DNA of 64,000 nt from the NCBI GenBank assembly GCA_038025085.1, contig CM076147.1:997001-1061000 (forward strand), in the 5' to 3' direction. The stretch's first letter is position 1. Each line of letters starts with the position of its first letter. Made by a program: the position numbers and the translations under genes. The notes below the pieces were generated by a model. That model was not told the origin of the DNA. It worked only from the letters and a program-made list of their open reading frames with translations, and did no database searches. Shown one piece after another: positions 32,722 to 56,211 of this stretch. The DNA is from Tetragonia tetragonoides (Eukaryota; Streptophyta; Magnoliopsida; Caryophyllales; Aizoaceae).

Positions 32722-32878
<157 letters not shown>

Positions 32879-36701: not shown

Positions 36702-37886
36702 ATGCCACCTAGAAGAAATAAACAAAGAGTCAGCTAGTTCAATGGGGGATAACAATAATGTTAATGGAGAGGCATCAACGCAAGCTTTGTTGGCGCAACT
36801 GGCTCACTCGCAACAAGCTTTGGCGCAATCCAATGCATTCATCGTGCAGATGATGCAAACGGAAGAAAAACGGGTAGCTGGGGGTGACGATTTTGCCTCA
36901 GTGTCAAAGAAGATTAAGGGGCATAATCCGCCTGTGTTGAGGGACGCGAGGATCCTGTAATCCTTGACGATTGGAAGCGGGATTTAGAGAAAATCTTCAC
37001 GATTACTAGGTGTCCGGAGGCATTTAAGGTGGACAGTGCTGTCTATTTATTCCGGAGAAAGGCAGATTGTTGGTGGAGGACCAATGGCACAACTATTAGA
37101 GCTCGAGAGGGTTTTAATTGGGAGATGTTCAAAACGGTCCTTAGAGAGTAGTACTATCCAGAGTATCTCTAATACCAAAACTATAACGAGTTCTTGAACC
37201 TTATCCAAGGAAGGATGACTGTTTAGGAGTATGCTGAAAAGTTTGACTGCCTAGCTCGTTTCGCGGGAGGATTAGTCCCTACGGAACAGCATAGGGCCCC
37301 TAGATTCCAGAATGGGTTGTACTGGACCATTCGTGAGTCTTTTGGGGGTTATATCTGTCAGACCATGCAAGAGGTCTACAATCGTGCTGCGAACCATGCT
37401 GCGGTTTAGAAGCACAGAGAGGAGGTGACTGGGAAAAAGAGGAAGTTTGACGACCATCAGGGTAGTGGTGGCGAGAATAAGGATAAGTTCCGGGGAGGGA
37501 ACAATCTCAATGGGAAATTCCAAGAATGGAAATGACAAGAATGGCAATGGAAATGGCCATCGTAACAATGGGGGTTGGAAAGGCAAACCTTACATTTGTA
37601 GACAGTGCAATAAGAATCACCCAGGGGTTGACTGTGCTGGTAACAAGGTGAGGTGCTTCACTTGTCAAGAGTTGGGGCATCGTTCTTTTGATTGTCCTCG
37701 AAAGGGCAAAACCGTGAACAATGGTGGGGGCAACAACAATGTTCAAGCTCCTGCAGTTCAGAGTCAAAACAGGAATAACCAGGGTGGTAATCGACAGAAT
37801 GGGCTGAATGGACAGGCTGAAAATGTTCGGAACAATAATGGCAACCAGAGCAGAAATGAGGGTCGTTTGTTTGTGATAAATCAAGT
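36702..37886 (+). pseudogene. Chromovirus gag (broken)
   Basis: It starts MPPRRNKQRVS at 36,702 and meets a stop at once. A Gln/Asn-rich segment follows in another frame at 36,742. The capsid-like region (FRRKADCWWR and similar at about 37,050-37,080) has further stops. The nucleocapsid zinc knuckle CFTCQELGHRSFDC (CX2CX4HX4C) lies at 37,654-37,695, preceded by CRQCNKNHPGVDC. It packages element RNA in the family, but this copy cannot make an intact Gag. Confidence 0.8.
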
Positions 37887-38706
37887 ACAGGCTGATGCGC
37901 CAAACAATGTGGTGACTGAGACGTTTCTTGTAAATTCCTTGCCTGCCTATGTATTATTTGATTCTGGAGCATCACATTCATTTTTATCTGAAAACATTGT
38001 TAAGAAACATGGGATGAGAGTTGTGGAGTCTTTATAGACTAGTATTGCAACTCCTTCTGGAGAGGTGGTATTGTGTAAAGTTGTGCATCCCAATGTTCGT
38101 GTGAACATTGCAGGGTCTGAATTGCCTGCAGACCTGATTGAGTTCCAGTTGAGAGATTTTGATGTGATTTTGGGGATGAATTGTCTTAGCAAGTATAAAG
38201 CGAGGATCGATTGTAGTGAACAAAAGATATCGCTGAAAGGACCTAGAGGTAATAGAATCTCTTATAAAGGAATTGTCTTTAAGAGAGGAATTGAGATTAT
38301 TTCGATGTTAGTGGCGAAGAAACAGTTAGAGAAGGGATGTGAGGGATTTTTTTTGTCACATCCAGAATGTAAAGGGAATAGACGAGGAAATCTCAAAGAT
38401 TGATGTGGTCAATGAGTTTCCGGATGTGTTTCCTAAAGAAATTCCTGGTATGCCATCAGTAAGGGATACTGTGTTTCAGATTGACCTAGTTCCTGGAACA
38501 GATCTGATTTCGAGGGCACCGTATAGAATGACACCTTTGGAGATGAAAGAGCTAAAGGAGAAATTAGAGGAGTTGTTAGACAAGGGGTACATTAGACCAA
38601 GTGTATCGCCTTGGGGAGCACATGTTTTATTTGTACGTAAGAAGGATGATAGTCTGCGTCTCTGCATTGACTATCGTGAGTTGAACAAGGTCACTGTCAA
38701 GAATAG
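37887..38706 (+). pseudogene. Chromovirus protease and RT N-terminus (5' part)
   Basis: The aspartic-protease motif FDSGASHSF is at about 37,957-37,983. It is followed by a stop at 38,035 and by the protease tail DVILGMNCLSKYKARIDC near 38,160. From 38,402 the RT N-terminus is readable ([38 protein letters not shown]). It breaks exactly at 38,706, where the Ogre-like element is inserted. The reading resumes at 56,217. Confidence 0.88.
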
Positions 38707-40273
38707 TGTGGGCTACCGTATTTTTCTCCCCTCTTTTCCGCGTGCCTTACCTTCGGCCCTCCTTTCGGGGGGTCGGGTTTTCCGAACAGCTTGGGAGAGC
38801 GCGTTGGGTGATCGAATTTCGTGAATCTTTTAGTGTATATGCACATAGAGATTTTTGTACCAAGGACATGATTAAGATTGTCGGAAGTCGCCACCAAATT
38901 TTGAGGTAATTTGGGAACCTTGGAGATCAAGTCGATAGTCTAGAAAGACGTCAACTCAACTCCTGTGCACCCCAATGCCTATTGGGAAATTGACTTCATT
39001 AATGAGTTCGGGGGCGTAGGTAGGACCTAAGAAGGTGTTAGGCACCCAACTCGCCCGTTAACAACAACGACCTTTACTAATCGATTCAATATAATTATTA
39101 ATGCTACGGTTCCAAACAGAGTTCAGTTTGTCCAAATTCCTAGTTTTAACTAATGGGTTTGAACAAGCATTATTAATGTGACCACTTTTAACAATTTATC
39201 AAGTTACATACTTTTTATTGCTAGAAAACAATAAATATGCTAAAAACCTGCGAGTTAGAAGACAAACAAGGTAATTCATCCACCAATTCACAAACAAAGC
39301 ATAATTCAATATGAAGCAATAAATAATAAATATGCATTCATTCATCCATTCATTAGGCCTAATACAAGCCCTATTGCCCAAAACGCGCCATGCATGTACA
39401 TATCACATAAACAAAATTCGTTAGTAATAATAAGCAATATAAAATTTATTGAAAACCCTCAGGTTGGATTACCTGGATGCTCACAATGAACTTATTGGGT
39501 TGTATTGCTTGAATTCATGCTCTTGATGAAGTATGAAGGTTTATTTTTGTGGTGCTAGGGCTAATCCTAAAGAAGGAGTAGAATCAGAATTTAGGGTTTA
39601 TAATATGAGAGAGAATGTCCAACCTCTTAGAGAGAATCTCCAACCTCACTCTAAAATTCCCAACCTCTTCAACTGAACCCTAAAGTTTGTTTATATAGAA
39701 GAGGGGTAGCTGTCAGGGTTTGGCACGGAAATCGAATGGGCCTCGAATTTTGCCGTCCGCGAGAAAGGGTCCAGGTGGCCAAACCGCTAGGCTGAGCGGC
39801 CAAACCAGCAGGCCAAGCGGTCAAGCCGCTTGGCAAGCGGTCAAACCGCTTGGCCTAGCGGCAAGGCCGCTTGTCCTAGCGGCCACCGCTTGAACCCAAG
39901 CGTGGCCGCTTGGACCTGGTGCGTTGTGCCTGCATAGGCGCCTGGCATGATTTTCGTGCGGGGGAGGCTCTTCCGAGGGGGTCCACGCGTGATTGACTGA
40001 GCTCCCTTGTTTGACCAAGGGTTGACTCATGGGTTTGGGTTCCCTTTCGGGCCCTTAGGTTCAAAGAGGCCTATCTCTCAGTTTTGGACTCCAATTGAAT
40101 TGAGTCCAACTGGTTTGAATCACCTGTACAAAAGGCTTCCACTGGCTAATTCAAATGAACTGGGCTAATCATCAGAGCAATTATTCTCGCAACCCAAGTT
40201 CGAGCAAAATCCAATCCTTTCATCATCGAGTTTTAACGGGGACTTATTATAGACACAATTTTTGGTATCTACA
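38707..40273 (-). repeat. 3' LTR of the Ogre-like element
   Basis: 1567 bp on the left side of the element. On the plus strand it begins TGTGGGCTACCG and ends TTTGGTATCTACA. It pairs with 54,663-56,211. A TATA box (minus strand TCTATATAAAC) lies at about 39,691-39,699, with the GCGG/CCGC array upstream of it at 39,779-39,912. Confidence 0.92.
39779..39912. promoter_or_regulatory. GCGG/CCGC palindromic array in the 3' LTR
   Basis: Half-sites of the form AGCGGTCAAACCGCTTGGC recur every 15-20 bases, about eight times, upstream (in minus-strand sense) of the LTR TATA box. Directly outside it is the motif CCAGGCGCCTATGCAGG (minus strand, near 39,930-39,947). Related arrays lie at 41,119-41,240, 44,973-45,110 and 55,735-55,850. 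Confidence 0.7.
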
Positions 40274-40291
40274 GAAGCCCCTACTTTGGCC
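40274..40291 (-). other. Polypurine tract of the Ogre-like element
   Basis: On the minus strand, a G/A-rich CCAAAGTAGGGGCTTC directly abuts the 3' LTR start (TGTAGATACC). It would prime plus-strand synthesis. Confidence 0.65.
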
Positions 40292-40394
40292 GAGCTCGAA
40301 TAGAGTGAAGGTCAACGTATTCCTGTGCCAATACCTGCAATAAAACAAGAAAACTTAGTGAGGTGACAATCAGTTAAAGATAAACAATCATTAA

Positions 40395-40905
40395 GTCCCC
40401 GGTTTATTCGACCGAGAGTATGATCCTATGCTGTAGGTCTGACAATAAATGTCCTCCAATTTTCAGTCGAAGGGGACCCTATGCTGTAGGTTACACAATA
40501 AACTTCCTCCGATTTTCAGTCGAAGGGGACCTTATGCTGTAGGTTACATAATAAACGTCCTCCGATTTTCAGTCGAAGGGGGCCTTATGCTGTAGGTTAC
40601 ACAATAAAATATTTTATTAGAGATAAGATAAGAGATAAAAATCCTCCGATTTTCAGTTAAAGGGTGACCCTATGCTGTAGGTCAAACAATAAACGTCCTT
40701 CGATTTTCAGTCGAAGGGGAGCCCTATGCTGTAGGTTACACAATAAAAAAAATATTTCGTTAGAAATAATATAAGAGATAAGAAATCTTTCGATTTGGTC
40801 GAAAGGTGACCCTATACTGTAGGTCAAACAATAAACGTCCTTTGATTTTCAGTCGAAGGGGAACCCTATGCTGTAGGTTACACAATAAAAATATTTCGTT
40901 AGAAA
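40395..40905. repeat. 3'-side tandem repeat of the Ogre-like element
   Basis: Units of about 53-55 bp (CCTCCGATTTTCAGTCGAAG, then CTATGCTGTAGGTTACACAA). The ATGCTGTAGG word is present eight times (once as ATACTGTAGG). Some units are lengthened by an A/T-rich TTAGAGATAAGATAAGAG insert. Tandem repeats in this position, near the 3' LTR, are known from the Retand/Ogre group. Confidence 0.9.
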
Positions 40906-42209
40906 TAATAAGTAGTAAAGGGTAGTAAAATGTTGCTCAGACCTTAGGTCGGGTTTGAGCCCATGCCATTTGGCCAAGTATAAATGTGCAAACCTGTGGG
41001 TTTAAAGTAGTCCTGTTTTTCATAACGGACTTTGGCGCGCAAATAACTGCTATGGACCTCGTGTTGGGCCCACTGATTTTGAACCAATGGCCCAAAGATA
41101 CGTCAGGGGTGAGAAAGTGGGCCAGGCGGTCAAACCGCCACGTCAAGCAGCCAGCGGCTATGCCGCTTGGCTTGCGGTCTGACTGCCAGCTGGGCGGTCT
41201 GACCGTCCACATGGCGGTTTGACCGGCCACTAGGTCATTTGTGCGGTTCTGCCATAAAAGGAGAAGGGGGTGGCCGAAATGGGTCATCTCCCCATTTCGA
41301 GCTCTCTTTTTCTCTCTCCCCCATTTTTGCTCAAGCTTTTCAACCTCAATCAAAGCCCCTAGCTCCAAATGTTGAGGTTTTCTTGCTCAAATACTTAGTA
41401 GAACTTGATTTTGCTAGTTGTTCTTGTGTTTTTGAGTGCCAAAACTCAAAATTGGGTGAATTTGTGAGTTTTGTGAGTTTCACTCAAATTTCAAAAGCTC
41501 CATTTTTTGCTCTTCATCCATTGCTCCTAATGTTTTTACTCGGGTTTTTGCTTCCGGTATACCCCATCACCGGGTGGGTGAGAGCCGGTTAGTCCAGGAT
41601 GATTTCACTCGCAGTGATTTCCATCCTACCGATTGTTGGAAGCCCAGCGATCTTGTTTTCAAGAGGAAGGATCATTTGGTTACCGTTGGTACCAAATGTC
41701 GGGTATGTCATCATTTCTTGTTCTCGCTCTTTTACACTTAGAAAATCATGTGTAGGCGAACATAGAATTTCTAGGTTGAGAACTGTAGTGTAGTTAAATG
41801 TGGAAAACCAATTTGCGTGAAATTATTTTTCTGGTTAATTTGCGAATTCCCGCAGAATTCTTGTATTTATATGCATGTGAAGAATGAATTTGTGTGAAAT
41901 TGATCTTTAATTTGTGGAAGATAAATTTGTATGAAATTTACTCTCGTTGCAATTATATATTTCTGTGAAAATAAACTTGAATGAAGTTTACTTTTGCTGT
42001 GGAGGTAAACGGTTTTTCGAGTAAATTGTGGAAAATAAATTTGTGTGAAATTTATTCTCTTTAAAATTTACTCTCGTCATGTTGGCTTAGCTAAAATGCT
42101 AAATTTTACGATTTATAAAAATTTAGGACTAAACTGGAGACTGGTAGTTGTTACTAGGATCACCTAGCTACTTTTCTTTGCACTCTTTTTTTTTTTGTGC
42201 TGTTTTAGG
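40906..42209 (+). promoter_or_regulatory. Promoter, leader and 5' UTR intron of the antisense PMD gene
   Basis: A GCGG/CCGC array (41,119-41,240: GGCGGTCAAACCGCC and similar) is followed by a TATA-like CATAAAAG at 41,253-41,260 and a CT-rich leader (CTCTCTTTTTCTCTCTCC). A possible 5' UTR intron runs from GTATGTC near 41,703 to TTTTAG at 42,208, directly before the ATG. The small open frames in the leader (41,239-41,592 and 41,599-41,793) have no recognised domain. Confidence 0.5.
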
Positions 42210-44472
42210 ATGTCGACACGGCCATGCGGGGTTACGGTAGCCCGTAGGTACGTGACTCCTTTGGTGGACGCTATTGTGGCGCGTTGTGGCTTCAGTCACT
42301 TTTTAGCGGCCATGGCTTCTGCTGAGCGCTCCGATCTCCTATTAGTTTGAGGCCTTGCGGAGCGGTACTGGGATACTACCAGTACCTTTCATTTTCCTAT
42401 GGGTGAGATCATGATCACCCCTTTCGAGTTCGGTCTCATTTTTGGGCTTCCTTGCACCGGTACTCCTGTTACTTATTGAGATGTGAGCCGGGAGGTTATG
42501 GTGGAGATGTTAGTCTTTTTGGGACCAACTGGGATGATAGGGAGTATGGTCGGACTGACGTCATGGTCCAGTTCCTGACCAACCCGAGGAAATTGAAGAA
42601 GCTCACGGCGGAGCAGCGCGCTCGCCTTTTCTTGGCCCTTGTTCTAGCTTGTTCCGTCTTTTTGGATAAAGCTAGTAGTTACCATGTTCGTTACTTCCCA
42701 TGCTTGCAGGATTTGGATAGAGTTTCTGAGTACAACTTGGGTCTTCCCGCATACTCTTGTCTTCTATGGTGTTTGAGGTAGTCCAGTCGCCTCAGTGGAG
42801 AGGAGGGCGCATCTCGCGTCTCCTTAGTTGGATATTGGAAGGTTATGGAGGTAATTTCCTTTTACCCTTCTTGTACTTTGTGTTTCGGCTCTTTATTAAT
42901 AACTTGTGCCTAATCCATGTACTTTGCATGTCTTAGATTTGGTTTTATGAGCATTTTCCTAACCTTGCCCCTCTTCTCGAGACAGGGTATTTGTCCTTTC
43001 CAGCGATGCAGACCTGGAGGGGACGGGCTTCTTGCCCATTTACTACACTGCACGCCCTTAGGGAGGCGATATATCCCTTGACCGCTCAGGATGTAAGCAA
43101 TTTTCCTTTGTGCTTCTTTGGTCCTTTTATCCTTTTGTATGCTTATTCTTGCTTTTGCAGGTTGACTGGTTTCCCTGGACGGATTACGTCCCGGGCCTAT
43201 CGGATAGATTCTTGGGTGCTCGGGTGTACGCCCAGAGGAGGATCCTTATTGAGGGTCCCTTTGGTTTTGATTGGTTCTTGGGGGAGAGACTGATTAGGCA
43301 AACTTTCCCCGACCTTCCGGCTTCGAGGATTCCTTTGGGTCCTCCGGATTCTATGCTTTATGTTCGTCACCTTACCGTGGAGCAGGTGAGGGCGGCCACC
43401 ATTGGGGCGAATGCCCTTGAGTATTTGCTTCCAGCTGATCCTGAGGTGGATCTCATGGGGGCTTATACTGATTTCGTTGAGGCGCGGTTATGCCCCAACT
43501 TCTCTACCGATCCGGTGACTAATGTACTTTTGTTTCTTAACTTCGTTTGGAAATTTAGAAATGTGTCTGACATTCTTAAATCTTTGCAGAGTGCTTCGAG
43601 TTCTTCGGCTGTTTCTGCTCCGCGTCCTACTCCTCCTACTTTGTCGGTGAGCTATACAGGAGCGGACGAGTCTCCTTAGGTTATACAGGTTCCTGAGCTT
43701 TGTGGTCCTGATGAGGAGGTTGAGGGATTGCCTCTACCTGTTGGCTGTAGGGGGGTAAGTTAGAATTCATTGTTATTTGCAATGTTTCCTTTGTATTTAT
43801 GCTGATTCTTTTTCTTATGTGCACAGTTGGATGCTGCTGAGACACGGAAGGTCTTTAGGGGCATGCATGCCCTTAAGAGCCTGATTTCCAAATTCATGTC
43901 TCGGAGTGTATGCACGAGTCGTCGGTCCGACGTTTGAGAGGTATGTTCATTTCAAGTAATAATGCTTGATTTGAATTTTTGGCAGCTTTCTTACCTGGAG
44001 CTTATTTTCGCAGCCTGTTCCCGTGGTGAGGCCTCCTAGGCCTTCAGTTGTTCGTACTCCGGAGTTGGTGTCTACACCACAACGTCCTCCTCCCAGACAG
44101 GAGAGTGTAGAGGTGCGGCAGGGGAGGCCTCGGGCTAGAGTGGATACGGGGAGCTCGCCCCAAGTGCCTTCTCTTCCGCAATGGCCTGCGCCACCTCCCC
44201 ACATGGGGTACCCGGGCTATCATATGCCCACGTATCCTCCATTCCCTCCGAGGGGTTCTTGGAGTCAGGAGAGTACGGAGTATGGCGGTTATCCCGGCAT
44301 GTCGGATCCACCTCGTCATTCATTGGATCTCGCTTACTTAGCGGGTTCATTATTTGCTTTCGACCCTAGAGCTTGGGCGATGTCTCAGCCCGGTCCTTCA
44401 GGTGCTCCACCATCGAGTGGACCCGGAGAGTCGTCTCAGGCGGGTCCGAGTACTGGCGAAGATGGCCAGTGA
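42210..44472 (+). CDS. Antisense plant-mobile-domain (PMD) gene in the Ogre-like element, intron-containing, decayed
   Basis: Lies between integrase and 3' LTR but on the opposite strand to the retrotransposon genes. The protein resembles plant mobile domains (PF10536, 'aminotransferase-like'): AERYWDTTSTFHFPMGEIMI, then FGLIFGLPCTGTPV, AEQRARLFLALVLACSVFLD and DLDRVSEYNLGLPAYSCLLW. The later part has RILIEGPFGFDWFLGERLI and PDSMLYVRHL, and the tail is Pro/Ser-rich. Several introns with GT..AG ends fit: about 42,850-42,936, 43,093-43,160, 43,516-43,589, 43,756-43,826 and 43,939-44,013. In-frame TGA stops (about 42,347 and 42,477) and a frameshift near 42,480 show decay. Host PMD proteins such as MAIN and MAIL1 act in transposon silencing and development; the role of an element-borne copy is unknown. 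Confidence 0.72.
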
Positions 44473-44959
44473 TATTTGCTGTAGTGCATTTCGAACTTTC
44501 GGGCTTGTATTAAACCTGCTACAAATTATTGCATTTTATTCACACACAAACATGTCATACAAATGCCCATATGTGAACTTCAATCAACTACTTTCTGAAT
44601 GGGAAATCACAAATCACGACATTCGGGAATTTAGGAATCCCGAGAATTTAGCACATTTGGGGTACCCCTTCCCCTAAAATAAAAATAAAGTAAAGAAAAG
44701 TAAAATAGAAAAAGATTATTAAAGAGGAAAATATTAATAAAGGAAATCCGAAAATAAAAGGAATAAAAGTGGAAATTGATAATCAAGAAAGAAAATAAAA
44801 AGAGAATAAATAGAAAAGTGGCAACAGCCAAAATTAAGGTAAGAAAAATATAAGGAAGGATTCCAAAATCTGTCCAAGTGGGAATTAGGAAGGTAGAGTC
44901 CGGTCAGGCGTGGGGTCGGTTGAACCGAGGTCTCTCGCGAAAAGAGTACACCAGGCGCC
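44473..44959. other. Spacer between the two antisense genes
   Basis: Strongly purine-rich on the plus strand at about 44,675-44,830 (AAATAAAGTAAAG-type words). It then leads into the shared motif CCAGGCGCCTATACAGG at about 44,952-44,968. No coding signal. Confidence 0.45.
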
Positions 44960-45194
44960 TATACAGGATGACCGCTAGAGCTCCTAGCGGCTGTGCTAGA
45001 GCTCTAGCGGCTACCGCGTGGATAAGCGGCTATGCGCTTGGGCTTGCGGTTTGGCCGCTTGCTGGAGCGGTTTGGCCGCTTGTCCCAGCGGCTTAGCCGT
45101 CCAAGCTAGCTTCAAGGCCGCCTGACCTTTTTTTCGTCGTTTGTCTGGATTTCCTTAAATCTTCGACGAGAATCAAACCGTAGCCTCTATATAG
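44952..45194 (+). promoter_or_regulatory. LTR-like promoter of the DUF7745-like gene
   Basis: CCAGGCGCCTATACAGG is followed by a GCGG/CCGC array (44,973-45,110: GCGGTTTGGCCGCTTG and similar) and a TATA box TCTATATAG at 45,186-45,194. The LTR carries the same three parts in the same order: CCAGGCGCCTATGCAGG, array, TATATAA. The orientation is toward the gene at 45,280. Confidence 0.65.
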
Positions 45195-45279
45195 TTGGGT
45201 CTCTTTCTCTTCTCTTCTCACCACTTGCTTTAAGCCCTTAGAGAGAGAATTCCTTGAGAGAAAATCATTAATCTTAACA

Positions 45280-46832
45280 ATGGTGAACTTTGATGATACT
45301 TTTGATGCTTGGTTGGCTTCCATGACTGTAGAGGAGAGGTTAGAACTCACCCCTTTTCATCTCAATGCCTTCTTTCACCTTAAACATGTCAAGATTCTAT
45401 GGGACTTTCTTCATGCTTCAGTCGAGTTTTGGGACCCGAAATTCCATGTCTTCCGTTTCGGTGCTATGAGATGTGTCCCTTGGTGGGGGAATTCTCCGAC
45501 ATAATTGGCTTTCCAACCGAAAGTCCTCCTGCCATTCCCTACTTGGGGAATGCCTTCATGGGTGATTTCCAAAGGTGCCTTGGGTTGTCTCCCCATCAAG
45601 CGGGTCAAGTGCTTAATGGTAAGGACGTCGACCTTGCCAAGCTTGTGACTTTCTTCACTTCCAAGGCCCAACGTGCGATGGACATGAGGTACAAGAAGCG
45701 TGCCTTTGTATTTTGCCTCCTCCATCGTTATTTGTTTGTTGGTGGTAATGAAGATGCTCTTATTCCCTTCGAAAAGAAGCTTACCATTAATAGGGGCAAG
45801 GCTTGCCTTCTTAGGGTGACCGAACAGATACAATGGGATAGCTCTCCTATGCACTTGGTTGTGGAAGAGACAATCCTAGGTTTAGATAGGCTCAAGAGAA
45901 ATCCTCAAGAGTCCTTCACCGGGAGCCCTTTACTCCTTCAAGTAAGTATTGTGATAAAGTCTTAATCTTTGCGGATTTAACTTTATTTGGTGAAATTCTT
46001 ATCTTGTATTGACTTGAATTTTTCTTTTTGTTGTTTCTGTGTAAATATGGCTCCAAGAGAGGCTTCACTTGCTTGAGGCTCCAATAGATACTAGGAAGTT
46101 CCTCCCTAAACATTTTTCAGCGAGGCGCCGAGAGTTCTCCGAATCCTCTCGGGAAGTGTGGATAGCATATCTCTATTCCAATATCCAAACGGCTTGGTTC
46201 ATCCCGTGGTGGCGTACCACCAAGATTGTGGGGTGTAGTGAGAACGTGGCCTTTACGAGGATTATTGGTTTGTATACTTTGACATTCTTCTTGCCGAATC
46301 GCCTCCTCCGCCAATATAACTTAAGGCAAAGGATCCCGAACGTGAGTTGTGAACCTCCTTGTCAAAGGCCCTTAACATCCTCCTTGGTGTCTAATTGGGA
46401 ATGGCACTGGAACCGTCGCCAAGTGTGGACTAAGCCGGTCTACCCGCATTCAAACGGGTTGTCTAGCTTTTACGAGGAGTGGATTTGGAGCGATGACCAT
46501 CAAGTTAACAAAAAGCTCCTAGAGGAAGAAAATGAGTTGTTCAAGGCCCGCAAATATGATGAGCAAAACAGTATAAGGATCACTCCAATGGATAGGCCCG
46601 CTAAACCTTCAAGCCCCAAACTAAGGGTAAGGGAAAAGGTAAGGCAAAGGCCCAATCCAAGAAAAGGAAGAATCCGGCCCATTCGGCCAAGCAAGTAATT
46701 CCAAGTAGGCCCAATGATCACGAGGCCTCTTCTAGCTATGGTAGGGAAAGGTGGGCTCCAAGAGAACGAATGGAACTTGATGAGCCTAGCGAACCCGTAC
46801 AAGAGCCCGAAGTCAAAGACAAGGAGGAGTAG
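45280..46832 (+). CDS. Antisense DUF7745-like gene in the Ogre-like element, decayed
   Basis: Starts MVNFDDTFDAWLASMTVEER, with LNAFFHLKHVKILWDFL, FWDPKFHVFRFGAM and, after a frameshift at about 45,470, CPLVGEFSDIIGFPTESPP. The WDP...F.FG...CPLVGEF pattern resembles DUF7745, a domain common in plant transposon-associated proteins. A GTAAGT at about 45,942 and an AG before 46,056 suggest one intron. The second exon has an aromatic segment (WIAYLYSNIQTAWFIPWWRT) and a lysine-rich, then acidic tail ending at the TAG at 46,830-46,832, reached after another frameshift near 46,620. It is antisense to pol and directly downstream of an LTR-like promoter. Function unknown; the family assignment is from pattern memory only. 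Confidence 0.62.
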
Positions 46833-47192
46833 TCCACCTCTAATTGTCTAGCAAGTCTTGCCCTTTTTGCTTAGTAGTATAATTCAAATAACGGGTTTGT
46901 ATGCCCAAGTAGATGTAGCTTAGAATTGCCCTTTTATTTATTTATTTATTGTTGTTATTTATTTATTTATTTATTTATTTATTATTATTCGCGTTTTATT
47001 TATTTTTATTTATTTATTAGAGCATGTAATGGACTTTAGCCATATTAATGAAAGACTTGCTTATTTTTGCATTAATCGAATGGATCAAAACTCCCTTTAT
47101 AGATTTATTTTGTTAAAGTGGTCGGGCCCAAGTTATATGGGTTACCTACATATCCATGCGGAATCAGGCCAATGTAGTTCGTAAAACCAAAT

Positions 47193-47224
<32 letters not shown>

Positions 47225-47339
47225 GGTCGTGGGTCCCACATGGACGAGTTGACCGATTTTGACTTGGATTTGGTGCCTTAGTGGGCTCTCTCAAAGATTT
47301 CACATTTATACATAGAACCGCTTAAGTTGGTCCTTATTT
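46833..47339. other. Junction between antisense gene and pol 3' end, with microsatellites
   Basis: Holds a (TTTA)n tract at about 46,927-47,021 and a T tract at about 47,193-47,224. Both the antisense transcript and the sense pol transcript would end or overlap here. An AATGAAAG-type signal lies near 47,048. Confidence 0.5.
46927..47021. repeat. (TTTA)n microsatellite
   Basis: Runs of TTTATTTATTTA with short interruptions (GTTGTTA and CGCG). Confidence 0.9.
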
Positions 47340-48045
47340 GTGAGTTGGGTGAACTCGTTGCCATCTAAGTCCATTAGCTTTTGCTGCTCCACCGGATAAT
47401 ATTGTCTTAATAAGGTATGGGCCGGCCTAATTAGGCTTGAACTTTCCCCGACGATCGGCCACAATTGGTCTCACCTCTTTTAGGACTAAGTCTCCTTCTT
47501 TTAGTCCTCTAGCCTTGAATCGTTGATCAAAATGCCTCGCCATCCTTGCTTGGTAGACATGACCATAATGTAGGGCATTTAGTCGTCTTTCATCTAGCAA
47601 GATTAATTGGTCATACCGGGCTTGAACCCACTCTACTTCGGGTAATTCACTTTCCAAAGCTATCCTCAAAGAGGGAATTTCTACCTCGACTGGGAGTACC
47701 GCCTCCATTCCCTATACTAAAAAATAAGGTGTTTCTCCCGTTGAGGAACGAATGGTGGTTCTATATCCCCATAAGGAGAATTGTAGCTTCTCCGGCCAAT
47801 CTTCGTAGTTTTCCGTCATCTTAGCTATCATTTGTTTCACGTTTTTGTTTGCGGATTCTACGGCTCCATTTGTTTGTGGCCTGTAAGGTGAAGACTGGCA
47901 ATGTTGAATTTTAAACTTAGTGAAAAGCTCGGCAACATCCTTTTTGAATTGAGACCCGTGATCACTTATGACCTCGTGGGGCACCCCATATCTGGTGATG
48001 ATGTTTGTCATGTATGAACTTTGTCACGTGTTGGGACGCTATCCT
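47340..48045 (-). pseudogene. Ogre-like integrase, catalytic core end and C-terminus
   Basis: Frame 47,712-48,011 carries the core residues Asp (VISDHGSQFK) and Glu (NGAVESANKN) and ends TGETPYFLV. The next frame (47,427-47,708) has ALPVEVEIPSLR-like and ARYDQLILLDERR segments of the integrase C-terminal region, and the end (to about 47,345) reads GPYLIKTILSGGA and WQRVHP. Stops separate the frames. Integrase inserts element cDNA into the genome; this copy is interrupted. Confidence 0.85.
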
Positions 48046-48048
48046 TGC

Positions 48049-49062
48049 CTACGAACGAGCTTCAACCCATTTGGTAAAGTAGTCTATCGCGACTAAAATG
48101 TATTCATGGCCTCCTTTTCCAGTGGGGGTGGTTTTTCCAATGATGTCAATACCCCATGCAGAGAACGGCCATGGTGAAGTGAATGTATGTAAAGGGGTAG
48201 GTGGTCTATGTTGTAAATTAGCGTGAAATTGGCAGCGTGTGCACTTTCTCACGTATTCAATGCAATCTTTTTCCATTGTAGTCCAATAGTATCCTTGCCT
48301 TAGGATTTTCTTATCCAAGGTGAGTCCATTCATGTGGGGACCACATACGCCATTATGTATATCGCTCATGACTTTGATGACCTCGCGTTCTTTTAAGCAC
48401 AGAAGACTTAACCCTTGTGGTGTCTTTTTATAAAGTTTGCCTTGCACATGTATGTATTGTGCGGCTAGTCTTCTTAAGGCTCTTTGTGCCCTAGGTGTGG
48501 ATTGTGGAGGATAAACTCCTTTGGCGAGTAAATTGAGAATGTCGGTAAACCATTCTTCCTCTTCTTCCTCGTTGAGGCATACTTCAAGTGCATTACAAAA
48601 GGCGGGCTCAGTGCGCCTTTGAATGTGAATGGACATGGAGATTACATCATCTGGAATATTTATCATAGAAGCCATCTTTGTTAAGGCATCTGCGAACTGG
48701 TTGTCATCTCTAGGAAGGTATGTGAAACGGACATAAGTGAAATATTTGGCTATCTTTTCAAGATATTCCTGGTAAGGTGCCAGGGATTCGCTTTTCACTT
48801 TCCATTTTTTGGAAACTTGGTTTATGATGAGAGTTGAATATCCATATACCTTTAGATCCTTAATTTGCAGTTCTATTGCCGCTTCTAGACCAATGATGCA
48901 TGCTTCATATTCGGCGCCGTTGTTGGTTACCTCATGATCTAACTTGACGGCTATGGGAGTATGTGCACCTTCGGGGCTGACTAATAACACTCCTACGCCA
49001 TAACCCTTTTGGTTTGATGCTCCGTCAAAGTATAATTGCCAAGTGTTCTCCTCGACACTCAT
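48049..49062 (-). CDS. Ogre-like second RNase H and integrase N-terminus
   Basis: 337 residues. The first ~130 are the additional archaeal-type RNase H found in the TAT lineage: YFDGASNQKG (Asp), NNGAEYEACI (Glu) and FADALTKMAS (last Asp). The third catalytic Asp, normally in a GDS motif, is replaced by Tyr (KVYGYSTLII). The remainder is integrase: zinc-binding HHCC (DIHNGVCGPHMNG, CTRCQ) and the first core Asp (AWGIDIIG). Known role: degradation of the RNA-DNA hybrid and integration. The Tyr change would be expected to disable the second RNase H. Confidence 0.88.
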   Translation of the reverse strand: MSVEENTWQLYFDGASNQKGYGVGVLLVSPEGAHTPIAVKLDHEVTNNGAEYEACIIGLEAAIELQIKDLKVYGYSTLIINQVSKKWKVKSESLAPYQEYLEKIAKYFTYVRFTYLPRDDNQFADALTKMASMINIPDDVISMSIHIQRRTEPAFCNALEVCLNEEEEEEWFTDILNLLAKGVYPPQSTPRAQRALRRLAAQYIHVQGKLYKKTPQGLSLLCLKEREVIKVMSDIHNGVCGPHMNGLTLDKKILRQGYYWTTMEKDCIEYVRKCTRCQFHANLQHRPPTPLHTFTSPWPFSAWGIDIIGKTTPTGKGGHEYILVAIDYFTKWVEARS

Positions 49063-50324
49063 TGTTCCTTCATCTGGAAAGTCATGTGTAGCATCTTCAC
49101 TAGTAACTGGGTTTTCGGCGAGATGTTCAGAAATGGCATGTCCTTTGATCGCCTTTTAGTGTTCAAAAGTTAGATCGAATTCTGAAAGCATGACGGTCCA
49201 TCTTGCTATTCTTCCACTAAGGATGGGTTTTTCGAACAAGTACTTAACAGATTCATCCTTGACTTTATATGAACGGAATGTTGTAGCATGTAGTGTCGAA
49301 GCTTCTTGGTTGCAGTGACCAATGCGAGACACGTTTTCTCTAGGGTGGAGTATCGTGTTTCATATTCAAGGAATTTCTTGCTAAGGTAGTATATTGCCTT
49401 TTCGTCATTCTCCACCTTTTGGGCCAACATAGCACCCATGGCGGTTTCTGTGACTGTTAGGTATAGCATAAGTGGTTTTCCCGGAATGGGCGGAACCAGT
49501 ACCAGTGGTTTAGCTAAGTATTCCTTAATCTTGTCAAAGGCTTGCTGGCATTGATCATCCCAGGCAGATTTAGTGTCCTTTTTGAGCTTCTTGAAGATGG
49601 GCTCGCATGTAATAGTCAATTTGGATATGAATCGACTTATATATTGGAGACGTCCTAGGAATCCTCTTGTCTCCTTTTCATTTTTGGGAGATGGCATATC
49701 CCTTATGGCTTTGATTTTGGTAGGATCGATTTCAATACCTCTTGTGCTTATGACGAATCCTAAGAGCTTGCGCGAAGTTACTCCAAACGCACACTTTTGA
49801 GGATTTAATCTCATGTTGTAATTCCGAAGCATGTCAAAGAATTTCCTTAGAGAGGGTATATGCCCTTCTCTCTCCTTTGTTTCAATGATCATATCGTCTA
49901 CGTACACCTCGGCTTCCTTGTGTATCATGTCATGTAGAAGGGAAGTTGCGGTTCTTTTGTATGTTGCTCCCGCATTCTTCAACCCGAAAGGCATGACGGT
50001 GTAGCAATAAGTCCCCCATTGGGGAATGAAAGTGGTTTTCTCCATATCTTCTTCAGCCATTTGTATTTGGTTATACCCTACATAGCCGTCCATGAATGAT
50101 AAGAGGGCATGTCCTGCGGTATTATCCACCAATACGTCTATATGTGGCAAGGGAAAGTCGTCCTTTGGACTTGCCTTGTTCAGATCCCTAAAGTCAACAC
50201 ACATCCTTACTTTGCCATCCTTTTTTGGAACGGGCTCTATGTTAGCAACCCATTCTGGATATTGAGCAACCCTGATAAAACTCGCTGCGAGCTGTTTCTG
50301 CACCTCCTCTTTGATTTTCAGTGC
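49063..50324 (-). pseudogene. Ogre-like reverse transcriptase and first RNase H
   Basis: The frame 49,206-50,303 contains RT blocks: EPVPKKDGKVRMCVDFRDLN, FPLPHIDVLVD, SFMDGYVGYNQI, MPFGLKNAGATY and the active site EVYVDDMI, then FLGRLQYISRFI and RNase H segments (YYLSKKFLEYETRY). A TAG after MKPE at about 50,325-50,327 separates it from its upstream part. A frameshift near 49,290 and a TAG near 49,158 break the RNase H end, after which the frame runs into the second RNase H. Confidence 0.9.
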
Positions 50325-51128
50325 CTACTCAGGCTTCATTCTCCGAAATTTCTGCTTTACTGGCTTTGAATCCGGATTGAGCGGTATTGTATGCTGTGCT
50401 ATTTCGCGACTTATTCCCGACATGTGTTTGTAGGACCAAGCGAAAACGTCTATGTATTCTTTTAAGAGATTTATAAAGCTTTCTCGCTCTTTGGGAGTTA
50501 ACAATAAGCCTATGCGCACTTGGCGCGGCTCTTGATCGTTTGCAAGATTGATTAATTCTGTTTCTTCCACAATTGAAGTCTTTTGTTCATGCTCTAACAG
50601 TGCTTTAGTTACTTCTTTGGGCAATTCTTGTTCATCTTTTGAATTATTAGCTACTAAGTAATCCAAGAAGTAAGCAGAATCAGTTATTATTTCATTGATA
50701 GGGGAAACTAAAACATCAACTGAACCATTACTATTGGCTTTAACATCTTTCGACTTGCGAACAGAATTAAACATAGATTTGGGTGGACCACCCGACTCTA
50801 CTATATTAGACTCATCTTCGGAATCGGAATCGGACTCGGTCCGGTCGGAATCAGTGTCGGAGTTAGGCTTGGATTCTTCGGAGATCGTGATCTTGATCTT
50901 CTTTCCATTGGCTCCTGTCCAGCTTATAGTACGTTTCTGCTTTGTGAGTTGACCCTCGTTTGGAGTGATCAACTTAGTCGTGTCAAAGTTTGCATCCTGA
51001 ATTGCATTATTGACATTGTGGAGCTCTTCATCTTTTGGATGGCGATGCTCTTGTCCAAATAATAGACCCAAAGCATTGTTGGGTGTGTTCTCTACCCAAT
51101 CAAAATTCAGCCTCCTTCTTACAGGCAA
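50325..51128 (-). CDS. Ogre-like pre-RT region (RT N-terminus)
   Basis: 267 residues ending with the recognisable RT start DVFAWSYKHMSGISREIAQH and TIPLNPDSKPVKQKFRRMKP. The first half (RRRLNFDWVENTPNNALGLL) and a Ser/Asp-rich stretch (SDTDSDRTESDSDSEDES) have no recognised domain. No D-S/T-G type aspartic-protease motif is visible here, although a protease is expected between gag and RT in this lineage. It may have been lost or be too diverged to see. Confidence 0.7.
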   Translation of the reverse strand: MPVRRRLNFDWVENTPNNALGLLFGQEHRHPKDEELHNVNNAIQDANFDTTKLITPNEGQLTKQKRTISWTGANGKKIKITISEESKPNSDTDSDRTESDSDSEDESNIVESGGPPKSMFNSVRKSKDVKANSNGSVDVLVSPINEIITDSAYFLDYLVANNSKDEQELPKEVTKALLEHEQKTSIVEETELINLANDQEPRQVRIGLLLTPKERESFINLLKEYIDVFAWSYKHMSGISREIAQHTIPLNPDSKPVKQKFRRMKPE

Positions 51129-51149
51129 AGGAGGGATGAATGTGATCCT

Positions 51150-52412
51150 TCCTTTGTTAAGAGTGTCGGATAAGGCCTTATATCATACGAACGACCCCTT
51201 CATTGACGAGGTCTTGTATCTTGCGTTCCATGTGCACACATTCGTCCGTATGATGTCCCCTTCCTCGGTGATAGATGCAAAAGGAGGTATGGTTCCAGTC
51301 CTTACTCTTATTTCCTGGATCTGGATCAGGTGTTGGCCCAATGGGCCCTAGAATACCTTTCCAAAACAGGTCCTAAAAGATTTGAGTTGGGGTTGAAAGG
51401 ATGGAGGTGTATACCCTTTTTGGCATTTGGTTATGGTACTCTCTCTCGAGATTGGCGATGTTTCTGCAGCTGTATGGTTGAACTTCTATGAGATCTTGAA
51501 TTCCGTGCTTCAACGCCCAACACTCTTCAGTGTCGTGGCCTCTTCCCATGTGGTAATTGCAAAACTTACATGGGTGCCAGGCGATCCCTGGAGAGACAGG
51601 ATCGGGGGTTGGTCCCAGTGGTCGTATAATTCCAATGCTTATGAGTATCTCAAGAGTGTGAGTCAGATGGAGAGGTAGCGGGGAGAAGTTTCTTTTGGTC
51701 ATATCCCTCATGGATGGGACGTGACTAAGTGGGAGACTCACGCTTGGGTGGATGATAGATGCGGAATGTGCTTCTGCGTCCTCTCTTTTCTTTTCTCTTC
51801 ATCTCGATGTTAGTTACTTCTTCGTCTATTTGTTTTAGACCAGCAGTGATTTCCTTGACCAACTCCTCCAATGATTTCTTGGGGGTGCTGTTGGTTGTGT
51901 GAAGGTCATCCTCCTCATCACTATCCCAAATTCTGGCCACCTCTAGATGGAGGGAGTCAATCTTAAATGGTGGGATGCGATGTCCAATTGGCACAATCAG
52001 GCGAGAGGGGTCCTTTTCCTCTTCTTCATTTGTAATGACGAAAACTGCGCCTAGAGGGTTGGTGTTGTTATTTGGAGTGGGAACATTCTTTGGCTTGGGA
52101 ATAGTCCCATTGTCAAAAAGATCCTGGATTTTATTCTTGAGTGTCCAACACTTCTCGGTGTCATGTCCTTTTCCTCTATGGAATTTTCAATAAAGATTAG
52201 GGATCCGAAGTGGGGCCCACGACATTGCGGTAGTCATTCTTGACAAGCTTTTCCAAAGCTTTAGCATAGGTCATACCCAATGGGGTATATTGCCTTTGCG
52301 GTTTGTCGTAGACAACATTGATTTCATTAACCTTGTTGGAAGAGTTTCCCGAATTGGGGTTCTTCTTGTAGCTTGAGTTATAAGCACCTTTGTTGAAGAA
52401 GTCCTTGTTTTT
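51150..52412 (-). pseudogene. Gag C-terminal region with three zinc-knuckle-like repeats
   Basis: Three related segments read on the minus strand: near 52,125-52,195 (KFHRGKGHDTEKCWTLKNKI, its first Cys now a TGA), near 51,490-51,570 (CKFCNYHMGRGHDTEECWAL) and near 51,195-51,270 (CIYHRGRGHHTDECVHMERK). Each ends in an IQDL-type helix. The pattern C-x2-H/C..GH.T..C is the TAT-type knuckle, normally described once per Gag. Intervening frames (51,373-51,741 and 51,725-51,994) are open but mutually out of phase. Confidence 0.7.
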
Positions 52413-53414
52413 CTACTTTTTGAGTGTTTGATCATCCTCTATGAGCAATCCCACACTATTGAGTTGTACATATGAAGTAATTGCTTGGTATTTGAGAGGA
52501 TTCAAGTAAGGAGGTTGTAAGTTCTTGATGAGTTTCCGAATTTGCTCTTCCTCGGATGGACGGTCGAGCATTTCGGCCACTTTAGTTCTCCATTTCTTGA
52601 CAAAATCAGCGAAGCTTTCATTTTCACCTTGCTTGATTGGTTCCAACTCTCTCATGGTGGTTGGTTGGATGACATTGTCGGCATACCTAGTGAGGAATAA
52701 ACTTGACACTTTGTTCCATTCCTGAACCTGATTGGGCTCGAGCTTGAAAAACCATGCCCTAATAGTCGCGTCCAAGGTTTGTGAGAAAAGGTGAATATAG
52801 AGGTCGGGATCTACTCCTCTTAGGCCCATTGCAGCGGTGAAAGCCCTTATGTGATCTTTTGGATCATCGGTCCCTTTGAAGATAGGGACTTCAGGCATAG
52901 AGAACTTTTGTGGGAGCTTCCCCTTGATGTGAGAGGAGTATCCTTCAGCATTGATCATGTAGTCATTTATGATCTTGTTTTGAGTTAGAGCTAACTCAAG
53001 GTTCTTAATTTGAGCACTTAGCTCTTCTACCTTGTCATCTCGAGGTGGAGGATCATCCTGGTTAAGAGGGTCAACTTCTTTGACCTTGCTCTCTATCCAT
53101 GTCACACGGTTTCCCATGGTTTCCAGCATTTTCATCATTTCATTCAGCATCTCATCGGTGGTCTTAGGTGGTGGAGGGGGCATATCATCTTCGGCCATTT
53201 CACTCAACTTAGAACAAGATGGTCGATACGGAGGGGGAGTAACAAATACTGCGTCAGGCCTAGCTTTGCTCGAAGGGGGAGATTCCAATACGAGCTTCCT
53301 AATCAGATGTTGATTACTATGATCGCGTTCCCAACTTTTCGGACCGACTGTTTTCTTCCCAATCCTGGACGGCGGATAAGACTTAGAAAAAGAAAGACTA
53401 ACAAGTTCCACCAA
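52413..53414 (-). CDS. Ogre-like Gag, capsid part
   Basis: 333 residues. A Pro-rich and coiled-coil-like N-terminus (DDMPPPPPKTTDEMLNEMMK, VEELSAQIKNLELALTQ) is followed by the retrotransposon gag domain (FKGTDDPKDHIRAFTAAM, IRAWFFKLEPNQVQEWNKVS, LEPIKQGENESFADFVKKWR). Gag forms the particle that packages element RNA. The frame ends at a TAG near 52,413 within a linker before the knuckle region. The start at 53,414 is the first ATG and may be too far upstream. Confidence 0.85.
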   Translation of the reverse strand: MVELVSLSFSKSYPPSRIGKKTVGPKSWERDHSNQHLIRKLVLESPPSSKARPDAVFVTPPPYRPSCSKLSEMAEDDMPPPPPKTTDEMLNEMMKMLETMGNRVTWIESKVKEVDPLNQDDPPPRDDKVEELSAQIKNLELALTQNKIINDYMINAEGYSSHIKGKLPQKFSMPEVPIFKGTDDPKDHIRAFTAAMGLRGVDPDLYIHLFSQTLDATIRAWFFKLEPNQVQEWNKVSSLFLTRYADNVIQPTTMRELEPIKQGENESFADFVKKWRTKVAEMLDRPSEEEQIRKLIKNLQPPYLNPLKYQAITSYVQLNSVGLLIEDDQTLKK

Positions 53415-53510
53415 AGAAAAGTTTTAAAACAAAGATGGGAAGTTTCTATCTAGGATGTTCTATCAACATAGTTACCCTTGGGGACTAAGTAATGGGTTTA
53501 GGTCAAAAGA

Positions 53511-53925
53511 TCTCGACTCAATATAGGATAAACAAAAGATATTATACTCTTGACTAAAGGAGAGGGGAGAGATATTATCTCGACTCAATATGGGATAAAG
53601 CAAAAGATATTATACTCTTGACTAAAGGAGAGGGGAGAGATATTATCTCGACTCAATATGGGATAAAGCAAAAGATATTATATTCTTGACTAAAAGGAGA
53701 GGGGAGAGATATTATCTCGACTCAATATGGGATCAACCAAAAGATATTATACTCTTGACTAAAAGGAGAGGGGAGAGATATTATCTCGACTCAATATGGG
53801 ATAAAGCAAAAGATATTATACTCTTGACTAAAGGAGAGGGGAGAGATATTATCTCGACTCAATATGGGATAAAGCAAAAGATATTATACTCTTGACTAAA
53901 GGGAGAGGGGAAAGATATTATCGAG
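53511..53925. repeat. 5'-side tandem repeat of the Ogre-like element
   Basis: Six units of about 68 bp, each with CTCGACTCAATATGGGATAA, AGCAAAAGATATTATACTCT and TGACTAAAGGAGAGGGGAG. They lie between primer site and gag in the element's 5' untranslated region. Units are nearly identical. The plus-strand open frame through them is a by-product. Confidence 0.93.
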
Positions 53926-54642
53926 ATCTTTTGACCTAGACTCACTACCTAAATAAAGGGAAAGAATATAGCAACCAAATCTTTCCTAAGGTAACGAGCA
54001 TCATATAGAACATTCAGGGATATTATTTCCTAAAAATAAAGATTCTAGACTCGATCTTAAGACAAAATCTAGACTCAAAAAAGGAAAAGATCCTAATTGG
54101 GGTCTAACCTAATATTCTATGACAACCAAAAAGACTACGCAAAGATTGCGTTCACATATGGGCAAACAACAAACAACGCAATATGACATGATTATGCAAA
54201 TCTAGCATGGACATGGGACTGAGTTTCAACCTAAACATCGGTTCTAGTTCATGCAATGGGGTAGGCTTAAGGGTTTTGGTCAAAAGGTACTCATGATCAA
54301 GAATGTACTACAATTCGTGGGATGCGCGACAATGTGAGGCATTCTAGTTATCCTACTCGTAGAGTGGACGAATGCGTAGGAAGGTACATGAGGTGGGGGG
54401 ATCCATGTTGCTTGGAAAAGAAGAATCGAGTGGATTCTCACCAAGGCACTTCACACACTCCATTGGCTAAAAACTGGTTTGAACTTGTAAAAACAAGCTC
54501 GGAAGTCGCACAAGCGCATGCACATGAATGCAAATTAATGATGAATGACAAGTCACAAAATAATAATAAGAACACTCAAGGCAGTGAACCAAGAAAAAAT
54601 AATTATAAGGAATCGATTTTCAAGTTACACCCTCTTAATCAT
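53926..54642. other. Ogre-like 5' untranslated region
   Basis: No coding signal on the minus strand between the tandem repeat and the primer site. The plus-strand open frame at 54,322-54,780 runs into the LTR and has no domain. Confidence 0.45.
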
Positions 54643-54661
54643 GTCCCCAGTGAAGTCGCCA
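54643..54661 (-). other. Primer-binding site, Arg-tRNA type
   Basis: On the minus strand TGGCGACTTCACTGGGGAC follows the 5' LTR after one base. TGGCGACTCCACTGGGGA-type sites complementary to tRNA-Arg are known from Ogre elements; one position differs here. The tRNA assignment is from memory of the family. Confidence 0.72.
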
Positions 54662-54662
54662 C

Positions 54663-56211
54663 TGTGGGCTGCCGTATTTTTCTCCCCTCTTTTCCGCGTG
54701 CCTCACCTTCGGCCCTCCTTTCTAGGGGTCGGGTTTTCCGGACAGCCTGGGAGAGCGTGTTGGGTGTTCGAATTTCGTGAATCTTTTAGTGTATATTCAC
54801 ATAGAGATTTTTGTACCAAGGACATGATTAAGATTGTCGGAAGTCGCCACCAAATTTTGAGGTAATTTGGAAACCTTAGAGATCAAGTCGATTGTCTAGA
54901 AAGACGTCAACTCAACTCTTGTGCACCCCAATCCCTATTGGGAAAATTGACTTCATTAATGAGTTCGAGGGCGTAGGTACGAGCTAGGAAGGTGTTAGGC
55001 ACCCAACTCGCCCGTTAACAACAACGACCTTTACTAATTGATTCAATATAATTATTAATGTTACGGTTCCAAACAGGGTTCAGTTTGTCCAATTTCCTAG
55101 TTTAAACTAATGGGTTTGAACAAGCATTATTAATGTGACCACTTTTAATAATTTATCAAGTTACATGCTTTTTATTGCTAGAAAACGATAAATATGCTAA
55201 AAACCTGCGAGTTAGAAGATAAACAAGGTAATTCATCCACCAATTCACAAACAAAGCATAATTCAATATAAAGCAATAAATAATAAATATGCATTCATTC
55301 ATCCATTCATTAGGCTTAATACAAGCCCTATTGCCCAAAACGCGCCATGCATGTACATATCACATAAACCAAATTCGTTAGTAATAACAAGCAATATAAA
55401 ATTTATGGAAAACCCTCAGGTTGGATTACGTGGATGCTCACAATGAACTTATTGGGTTGTATTGCTTGAATTCATGCTCTTGATGATGTATGAAGCTTTA
55501 TTTTTGTGGTGCTAGTGCTAATCCTAAAGAAGGAGTAGAATCAGAATTTAGGGTTTATAATATGAAAGAGAATGTCCAACCTCTTAGAGAGAATCTCCAA
55601 CCTCACTCTAAAATTCCCAACCTCTTCAACTGAACCTTAAGTTTTGTTTATATAGAAGAGGGGGAGCTGCCAGGGTTTGGCACGGAAATCGAATGGGCCT
55701 CGAGTTTTGTCGTCCCCGAGAAAGGGTCCAGGCGGCCAAACCGCTAGGCTGAGCGGCCAAACCGGTAGGCCAAGAGGTCAAGCCGCTTGGCAAGCGGCTT
55801 AGCCGTAAGGCAAGCGGTTAAACCGCTTGGCCTAGCGGCACAGCCGCTTGGACCTGGTGCGGTGTGCCTGCATAGGCGCCTGGCATGATTGTCGTGCGGG
55901 GGAGGCTCTTCCGAGGGGGTCCACGCGGGATTGACTGAGCTCCCTTGTTTGACCAAGGGTTGACTCATGGGTTTGGGTTCCCTTTCGGGCCCTTAGTTTC
56001 AAAGAGGCCTATCTCTCAGTTTTGGACTCTAATTGAATTGAGTCCAACTGGTTTGGATCACCTGTACAAAAGGCTTCCACTGGCTAATTCAAATGAACTG
56101 GGCTAATATCAGAGCAATTATTCTCGCAACCCAAGTTCGAGCAAAATCCAATCCTTTCATCATCGGGTTTTTACAGGGACTTATTATAGACACAATTTTT
56201 GGTGTCTACAA
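54663..56211 (-). repeat. 5' LTR of the Ogre-like element
   Basis: 1549 bp, nearly identical to 38,707-40,273. The main difference is in the GCGG/CCGC array (55,735-55,850), which is about 20 bases shorter and lacks one TGTCCTAGCGGCCACCGC-like segment. The TATA box is at about 55,648-55,655 (minus strand). Confidence 0.92.

What the first reader, a model, noticed from the sequence alone, without database searches (positions are those of the whole stretch)
42210..46832. Two antisense genes, one with several introns, carried inside a giant Ogre-like retrotransposon
Seen: a PMD-like gene (42,210-44,472) with about five plausible GT..AG introns and a DUF7745-like gene (45,280-46,832), both opposite in strand to gag-pol, between integrase and 3' LTR. 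Known: some TAT-lineage elements carry extra antisense ORFs, and host PMD proteins (MAIN, MAIL1) take part in transposon silencing. Inference: because the sense genomic RNA does not splice antisense introns, such genes can be carried through retrotransposition with introns intact, so this element could transport working, intron-bearing genes. Two unrelated domains side by side in one element is unusual.
Basis: partly seen in the sequence, partly recalled or inferred. Interest (0 to 1): 0.88.

Follow-up and report, generated by a model that had tools for sequence, protein, structure and literature searches.

The report
Retrotransposon with two spliced antisense genes
A large plant retrotransposon carries two intron-bearing genes on its opposite strand, and one exon of the second gene exists in two very old, protein-coding versions that are shuffled among otherwise near-identical copies.

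Summary
A 17.5 kb Tat/Ogre-type element (minus strand, 38707-56210, AATAG on both sides) carries two plus-strand genes between integrase and 3' LTR. Both lie in order in 17 of 17 aligned sister copies with all six internal introns kept, so they are resident genes, not nested insertions. The copy in the window is broken in both. The domains are not unrelated: both proteins pass Pfam's PMD cut-off; DUF7745 is just below its own. PMD genes in Ogre elements are known.

The unexpected part is gene 2, exon 2. In 36 fully typed copies it comes in two forms (A 21, B 15) that differ by 29% of bases, while flanks differ by 3-5% whether copies share a form or not. Between forms dS is about 1.2 or higher and dN about 0.19 (ratio 0.15): two old alleles of a constrained protein. 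On the flank tree the forms are scattered as if shuffled, so recombination moved them repeatedly.

Whether the pair is kept by selection or one form came from another family is open; the donor search did not complete. No transcript data were available.

The parts
38707..56210 (-). whole LTR retrotransposon, Tat/Ogre type, 17.5 kb
   Evidence: LTR pair; AATAG at 38702-38706 and 56211-56215
38707..40273 (-). 3' LTR (TG..CA)
   Evidence: 94% identical to 54663-56210; K2P 0.050 over 1547 sites
54663..56210 (-). 5' LTR (TG..CA)
54645..54661 (-). probable primer binding site; resembles the tRNA-Arg type (tRNA end recalled, not from a call)
   Evidence: sequence
52413..53414 (-). gag ORF
   Evidence: PF03732, E 6.3e-9
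49206..50303 (-). reverse transcriptase and RNase H
   Evidence: PF00078, PF17919, PF17917
48049..49062 (-). second RNase H (aRH position) followed by integrase zinc-binding domain
   Evidence: PF13456, PF17921
47427..48023 (-). integrase core and C-terminal pieces, broken frame
   Evidence: stop-to-stop peptides; assigned by reading, not by Pfam
41251..41702 (+). possible promoter (TATA-like at 41251) and first exon of gene 1
   Evidence: start codon not settled
42209..44472 (+). gene 1, PMD gene: exons 42209-42850, 42937-43092, 43161-43514, 43590-43754, 43827-43940, 44014-44472
45186..45194 (+). TATA-like box upstream of gene 2, identical in 17 of 18 rows
45280..46832 (+). gene 2, PMD/DUF7745 gene: exons 45280-45941 and 46045-46832
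45942..46044 (+). intron of gene 2; acceptor lost in the copy in the window
46065..46600 (+). two-form segment of gene 2 exon 2 (the window has form A)

Best explanation
The element is a Tat/Ogre-type LTR retrotransposon with two accessory genes of the plant mobile domain superfamily on its antisense strand. Exon-intron anatomy is shown; TATA-like boxes were seen, but promoters, transcription and splicing are inferred. The introns persist because the genomic RNA that is reverse transcribed is of the other strand, on which these are not splice sites (retention shown, cause inferred). The proteins most likely act in the nucleus as regulators of the element or of host silencing (inferred from the role of host PMD proteins). 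The second exon of gene 2 exists as two old alleles, A and B, shaped by purifying selection as proteins (shown) and passed as a block between copies by recombination in the near-identical flanks, most likely template switching between co-packaged RNAs (repeated exchange shown, route inferred).
For: LTRs and target duplication; second RNase H between RNase H and integrase. Both genes in order in 17 of 17 aligned copies. Splice dinucleotides in 17-18 of 18 rows; intron lengths. Predicted homologue P0001 is continuous over the predicted gene 2 junction and P0002 has an extra stretch at the same point. PMD hits. Two forms: 144 diagnostic sites, 77, 39 and 28 at codon positions 3, 1 and 2. Net dS 1.24, dN 0.19, ratio 0.15; codon bootstrap 0.06-0.21, 193 of 200 draws usable. 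pN/pS between forms is 0.30 in the predicted frame and 1.1-1.7 in four of the other five; the fifth, a minus frame, gives 0.38 but holds 5.8 stops per copy against 0.9. Distances within A, within B and between (9 A and 8 B copies): 0.040, 0.034, 0.038 for 45280-46060; 0.032, 0.037, 0.037 for 46610-46900; 0.054, 0.048, 0.294 in the segment. On a tree of 5.6 kb of flank (18 rows) the form needs 6 changes (shuffled mean 6.3; starred branches force at least 3); on a tree of gene 2 flanks (35 rows) 10; on the segment's own tree (35 rows) 1, shuffled mean 11.
Against: No transcript data. Gene 1 has no deep comparison: changes private to one copy run 364 non-synonymous to 152 synonymous, the neutral ratio, and gene 2 exon 1 looks neutral too (106 to 42). 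pN/pS among copies is 0.46-2.39 for gene 1 exons 2-6 and 1.11 for the first part of gene 2 exon 1. So constraint is shown only for the two-form half of gene 2. Gene 1 and gene 2 do not match each other directly (BLASTP E 0.077; hhalign E 0.043, probability 1.2%); their kinship rests on the PMD profile. Gene 2 is 1 bit under the DUF7745 cut-off. The flank tree is weak (2 of 15 inner branches starred). Whether P0001 comes from spliced or intronless DNA is unknown. The label Ogre was not tested by an RT tree.
Confidence: 0.65

Rival explanations
1. One-off introgression: form B (or A) came by a single inter-family recombination from a distant related family, then drifted or hitchhiked to a middle frequency and was reshuffled by ordinary intra-family recombination. 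The two forms have no functional meaning as a pair.
For: High synonymous divergence confined to one block; intra-family recombination in bursts is documented (Sanchez 2017, abstract).
Against: Both forms also occur in more diverged, presumably older copies (A: L040-L044, B: L039, L045, L046), so the pair probably predates the last burst. This does not exclude an older introgression. The donor was not found because that search did not complete.
Confidence: 0.35
2. The two genes are separate nested insertions inside one copy, not part of the element.
For: Nesting is common; the element itself sits in another gypsy element.
Against: 17 of 17 aligned sister copies carry both genes in order, 16 of them running on into pol; aligned pieces are 89-96% identical.
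Confidence: 0.02
3. The antisense frames are chance or dead remnants without a protein product.
For: The copy in the window is broken; predicted exon frames are unbroken in 2 of 18 rows for gene 1 and 1 of 18 for gene 2; private changes are neutral.
Against: dN/dS 0.15 between forms in the predicted frame; conserved splice sites; PMD hits above cut-off. In gene 1, nonsense changes are 29 of 545 in single copies, 5 of 96 shared by two and 0 of 30 shared by three or more, a weak hint.
Confidence: 0.04
4. Forms A and B mark two separate subfamilies that do not recombine.
For: The segment's tree splits cleanly in two.
Against: Flank distances between forms equal those within forms; labels on the flank tree are as scattered as shuffled ones. 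LTRs and gag were not compared.
Confidence: 0.04

Closest known systems
Ogre (Tat) retrotransposons with a PMD extra ORF (Neumann 2019, PMC6317226; passages only)
   Same: Large element, aRH between RNase H and integrase, PMD-coding extra gene
   Different: That survey predicted extra ORFs as frames of at least 250 codons, so multi-exon antisense genes would be cut up or missed; two PMD-type genes and a two-form exon do not appear in the passages read
Retand antisense ORFs with TRP28 (Vicient 2025, PMC11963269; abstract, section 11 part 1 and passages)
   Different: Domain is TRP28, not PMD; the word intron does not occur in its main text; no TRP28 hit here at E up to 1
[quoted passage not shown] passages)
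   Same: PMD genes of Gypsy elements, widely distributed among angiosperms
   Different: Assignment of gene 1 or gene 2 to A1 or A2 was not tested
Onsen intra-family recombination (Sanchez 2017, PMC5668417; abstract)
   Same: Recombination between family members, likened there to sexual exchange
   Different: Here a block with near-saturated synonymous divergence is exchanged as a unit
Grande gene23 (as described in the review PMC7264820; passages)
   Same: Antisense accessory gene between pol and 3' LTR with its own promoter and a nuclear product
   Different: No PMD and no introns mentioned in that text (0 occurrences of either)

Membership tests
Ogre (Tat lineage) | aRH between RH and INT (angiosperm Tat: Ogre and Retand) | tested here: met
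   PF13456 lies after RT/RNase H and before PF17921; that it is the aRH type rests on its position
Ogre (Tat lineage) | PBS of tRNA-Arg type | tested here: inconclusive
   Site read at 54645-54661; tRNA end recalled, one mismatch; a text search for the motif gave 0 papers
Ogre (Tat lineage) | Place in an RT-RH-INT tree | not tested
   No reference set at hand
Ogre (Tat lineage) | Intron between gag-prot and pol | not tested
   -
Retand | Antisense TRP28 (PF04195) gene | tested here: not met
   No such hit for either spliced protein at E up to 1
PMD (PF10536), gene 1 | Score above Pfam gathering cut-off 34.9 | tested here: met
   88 bits
PMD (PF10536), gene 2 | Score above Pfam gathering cut-off 34.9 | tested here: met
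   44.6 bits, profile 9-345 of 347
DUF7745 (PF24924), gene 2 | Score above Pfam gathering cut-off 26 | tested here: not met
   25.0 bits, E 1.2e-5; the six homologues found, four of them from one Rhododendron molle locus, all carry PF24924

The most novel reading that the evidence does not exclude
A retrotransposon family behaves like a sexual population that keeps a balanced polymorphism: two ancient alleles of the C-terminal half of an antisense PMD-type protein are held at similar frequencies through successive bursts by selection (for instance against host recognition, or because A and B proteins work together), while recombination makes the rest of the element uniform.
Probability: 0.22. 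Interest if true: 0.85.

Novelty: new variant of a known kind. Interest (0 to 1): 0.6.

Why it matters
It shows multi-exon antisense genes carried intact through many insertions of an LTR retrotransposon, which surveys that look for long unbroken ORFs would undercount. The two-form exon gives a natural handle on what these orphan PMD proteins do: the exchanged half is where a functional difference would lie. It also shows, inside one genome, alleles of a retrotransposon gene that are old, constrained and reassorted between copies.

Tried and rejected
Structure of homologue P0001 from a six-row alignment: mean pLDDT 48, so no fold search was run. Homologues of gene 1: none at E up to 0.001. Solved structures: no credible match for P0001 or for gene 1. 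Viral contigs with P0001: none. The A2 profile search brought no new homologues. Selection within the family: neutral, uninformative for gene 1. Nested-insertion reading: rejected by the sister copies. Separate-subfamily reading of A/B: rejected by flank distances. Loci dropped: of the 19 other copies, L016 and L026 were left out of the alignment as truncated or deleted; L017 was left out of the later gene 2 alignments and trees (insertion in the segment; typed B); L047 and L048 gave no match to gene 2 in the 2 kb fetched.
Full report
What is there. The window is G000:C9:997001-1061000 of a 752.8 Mb genome. An LTR retrotransposon lies at 38707-56210 on the minus strand: LTRs 38707-40273 and 54663-56210 are 94% identical (K2P 0.050 over 1547 sites), start TG and end CA, and AATAG stands on both sides. 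Gag, RT, RNase H, a second RNase H and the integrase zinc-binding domain follow in order, which is the arrangement that Neumann 2019 gives for Ogre and Retand (passages). With recalled plant rates of 0.7 to 1.3e-8 per site and year the LTR distance means roughly 2 to 4 million years.

Gene models. On the plus strand between integrase and 3' LTR lie two genes. Gene 1 has six exons from 42209 to 44472 and very likely a further exon upstream that ends at 41702. Gene 2 has two exons, 45280-45941 and 46045-46832, with a TATA-like box about 90 bases before its ATG that is identical in 17 of 18 rows. The five internal introns of gene 1 and the intron of gene 2 are phase 0. Each core splice dinucleotide is kept in 17 or 18 of 18 rows. 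For gene 2 the junction has outside support: the predicted homologue P0001 is continuous across it, and P0002 carries an extra stretch exactly there. Whether P0001 comes from a spliced gene model or intronless DNA is not known.

The copy in the window is broken in both genes: frameshifting deletions private to it among the 18 rows, nonsense codons, and a lost acceptor in gene 2. Of 18 rows, 2 have unbroken predicted exons in gene 1 and 1 in gene 2. Changes found in single copies are at the neutral ratio. So these are mostly dead copies of a family whose source elements had open genes.

Resident genes. The DNA search scored 40 of 1239 candidates for gene 1, at 90-100% identity; a search with gene 2 scored 40 of 1043, at 89-100%. 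I fetched 20 loci of 9.5 kb: one is the window itself, 17 were aligned and hold gene 1 and gene 2 in order, and 2 were set aside as truncated or deleted. Of the 17, 16 run on into pol; L017 carries a 2.6 kb insertion and its fetched stretch ends just after gene 2. All six introns are present in all 18 rows.

Domains. Gene 1 scores 88 bits for PMD. Gene 2 scores 44.6 bits for PMD over almost the whole profile, above the cut-off, and 25.0 bits for DUF7745, just under its cut-off. The two proteins do not match each other directly. The safest statement is that both belong to the PMD superfamily and have diverged far. PMD genes in Gypsy elements are known: in 57% of Ogre elements (Neumann 2019, passages), and clades PMD-A1 and PMD-A2 only in Gypsy elements (Ikeda 2017, passages). 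Whether gene 1 and gene 2 are those two clades was not tested.

The two-form exon. In the alignment of 18 rows, mean pairwise difference per 100-bp bin is 2-9% and mostly 3-6%, except in 46100-46600, where it is 11-23%. The cause is two discrete forms. Over the 40 gene 1 hits, 36 were fully typed: A 21 and B 15 (18, 10). One more, L026, keeps only part, which is form A; L016, L047 and L048 gave no match to the exon in the stretch fetched. These 40 are the best-scoring hits, not a census of the family. Apart from scattered single sites no internal mosaic was seen between 46065 and about 46545 in the 27 rows; at least four copies (L025, L028, L039, L045) switch near the 3' edge. Form B has one codon more, so the frame is kept. 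One A and one B peptide are identical at 127 of 190 aligned positions.

Age and constraint. Net of variation within forms, dS is 1.24 and dN 0.19, ratio 0.15 (9 A and 8 B copies); a codon bootstrap on 16 A and 11 B copies gives 0.06-0.21 (193 of 200 draws usable; dS 1.0-2.6, so near saturation). Four of the other five frames show pN/pS of 1.1-1.7; the fifth, a minus frame, gives 0.38 but is full of stops. This is the strongest evidence that an antisense gene here is a real, constrained protein. It applies to the second half of gene 2 only; within the family gene 1 and gene 2 exon 1 look neutral.

Reassortment. Just beside the segment, distances within and between forms are the same (0.040, 0.034, 0.038 upstream; 0.032, 0.037, 0.037 downstream). 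On a tree of 5.6 kb of flank (18 rows) the form needs 6 changes, the shuffled mean is 6.3, and starred branches force at least 3; that tree is weak, with 2 of 15 inner branches starred. A tree of gene 2 flanks (35 rows) needs 10, the segment's own tree 1. So the segment moved between backbones several times. Intra-family recombination in bursts is published (Sanchez 2017, abstract). High divergence inside the segment would keep exchanges to the identical flanks, which explains why it moves as a block (inference).

How it works, most likely. Two antisense genes make nuclear regulatory proteins; introns persist because the reverse-transcribed RNA is of the other strand; template switching between co-packaged RNAs shuffles the two forms of gene 2. 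Shown: anatomy, intron retention, constraint on gene 2 exon 2, repeated exchange. Inferred: promoters, transcription, nuclear role, route of exchange. Open: whether the two forms are kept by selection or one came from a distant family. More diverged copies carry both forms, which suggests that the pair is older than the last burst but does not decide.

In print. No paper in the held library contains DUF7745. 'plant mobile domain' with 'LTR retrotransposon' and 'intron' gives 6 papers (listing; passages read in PMC6317226 and PMC9289625 only), and antisense with intron, LTR retrotransposon and additional open reading frame gives 4 (listing). None of the passages read describes a spliced antisense PMD gene or a two-form exon. 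Most subscription papers, among them Steinbauerova 2011, are not held, so priority cannot be judged from here.

Noticed in passing
32302-35561 with 59114-64000: The element seems to sit inside another Ty3/gypsy element on the + strand: long direct repeats with pieces 90-95% identical, protease and zinc knuckle at 37447-38037, RNase H at 56693-57214, integrase core (below cut-off) at 57637-58341.
   Followed up: partly
53488-53990 and 40416-40910: Tandem repeats of about 68 bp near the 5' end of the internal region and about 53 bp next to the 3' LTR.
   Followed up: no
6063-6584 and 22593-23072: ORFs with a bZIP domain and a kinesin motor piece, perhaps host genes.
   Followed up: no
19679-20751 and 31032-31710: Roughly 305-bp tandem repeats, with an inverted relative about 11 kb away.
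   Followed up: no
L017, after window-equivalent 46487: A 2.6 kb insertion inside the two-form segment of gene 2.
   Followed up: no
P0003-P0006: Four proteins named after one Rhododendron molle locus share the first half of the DUF7745 gene but differ in the second half.
   Followed up: no
P0001 and P0002: The one-residue length difference between forms A and B also separates P0001 (A-like) from P0002 (B-like), by eye; overall scores do not sort them clearly.
   Followed up: partly
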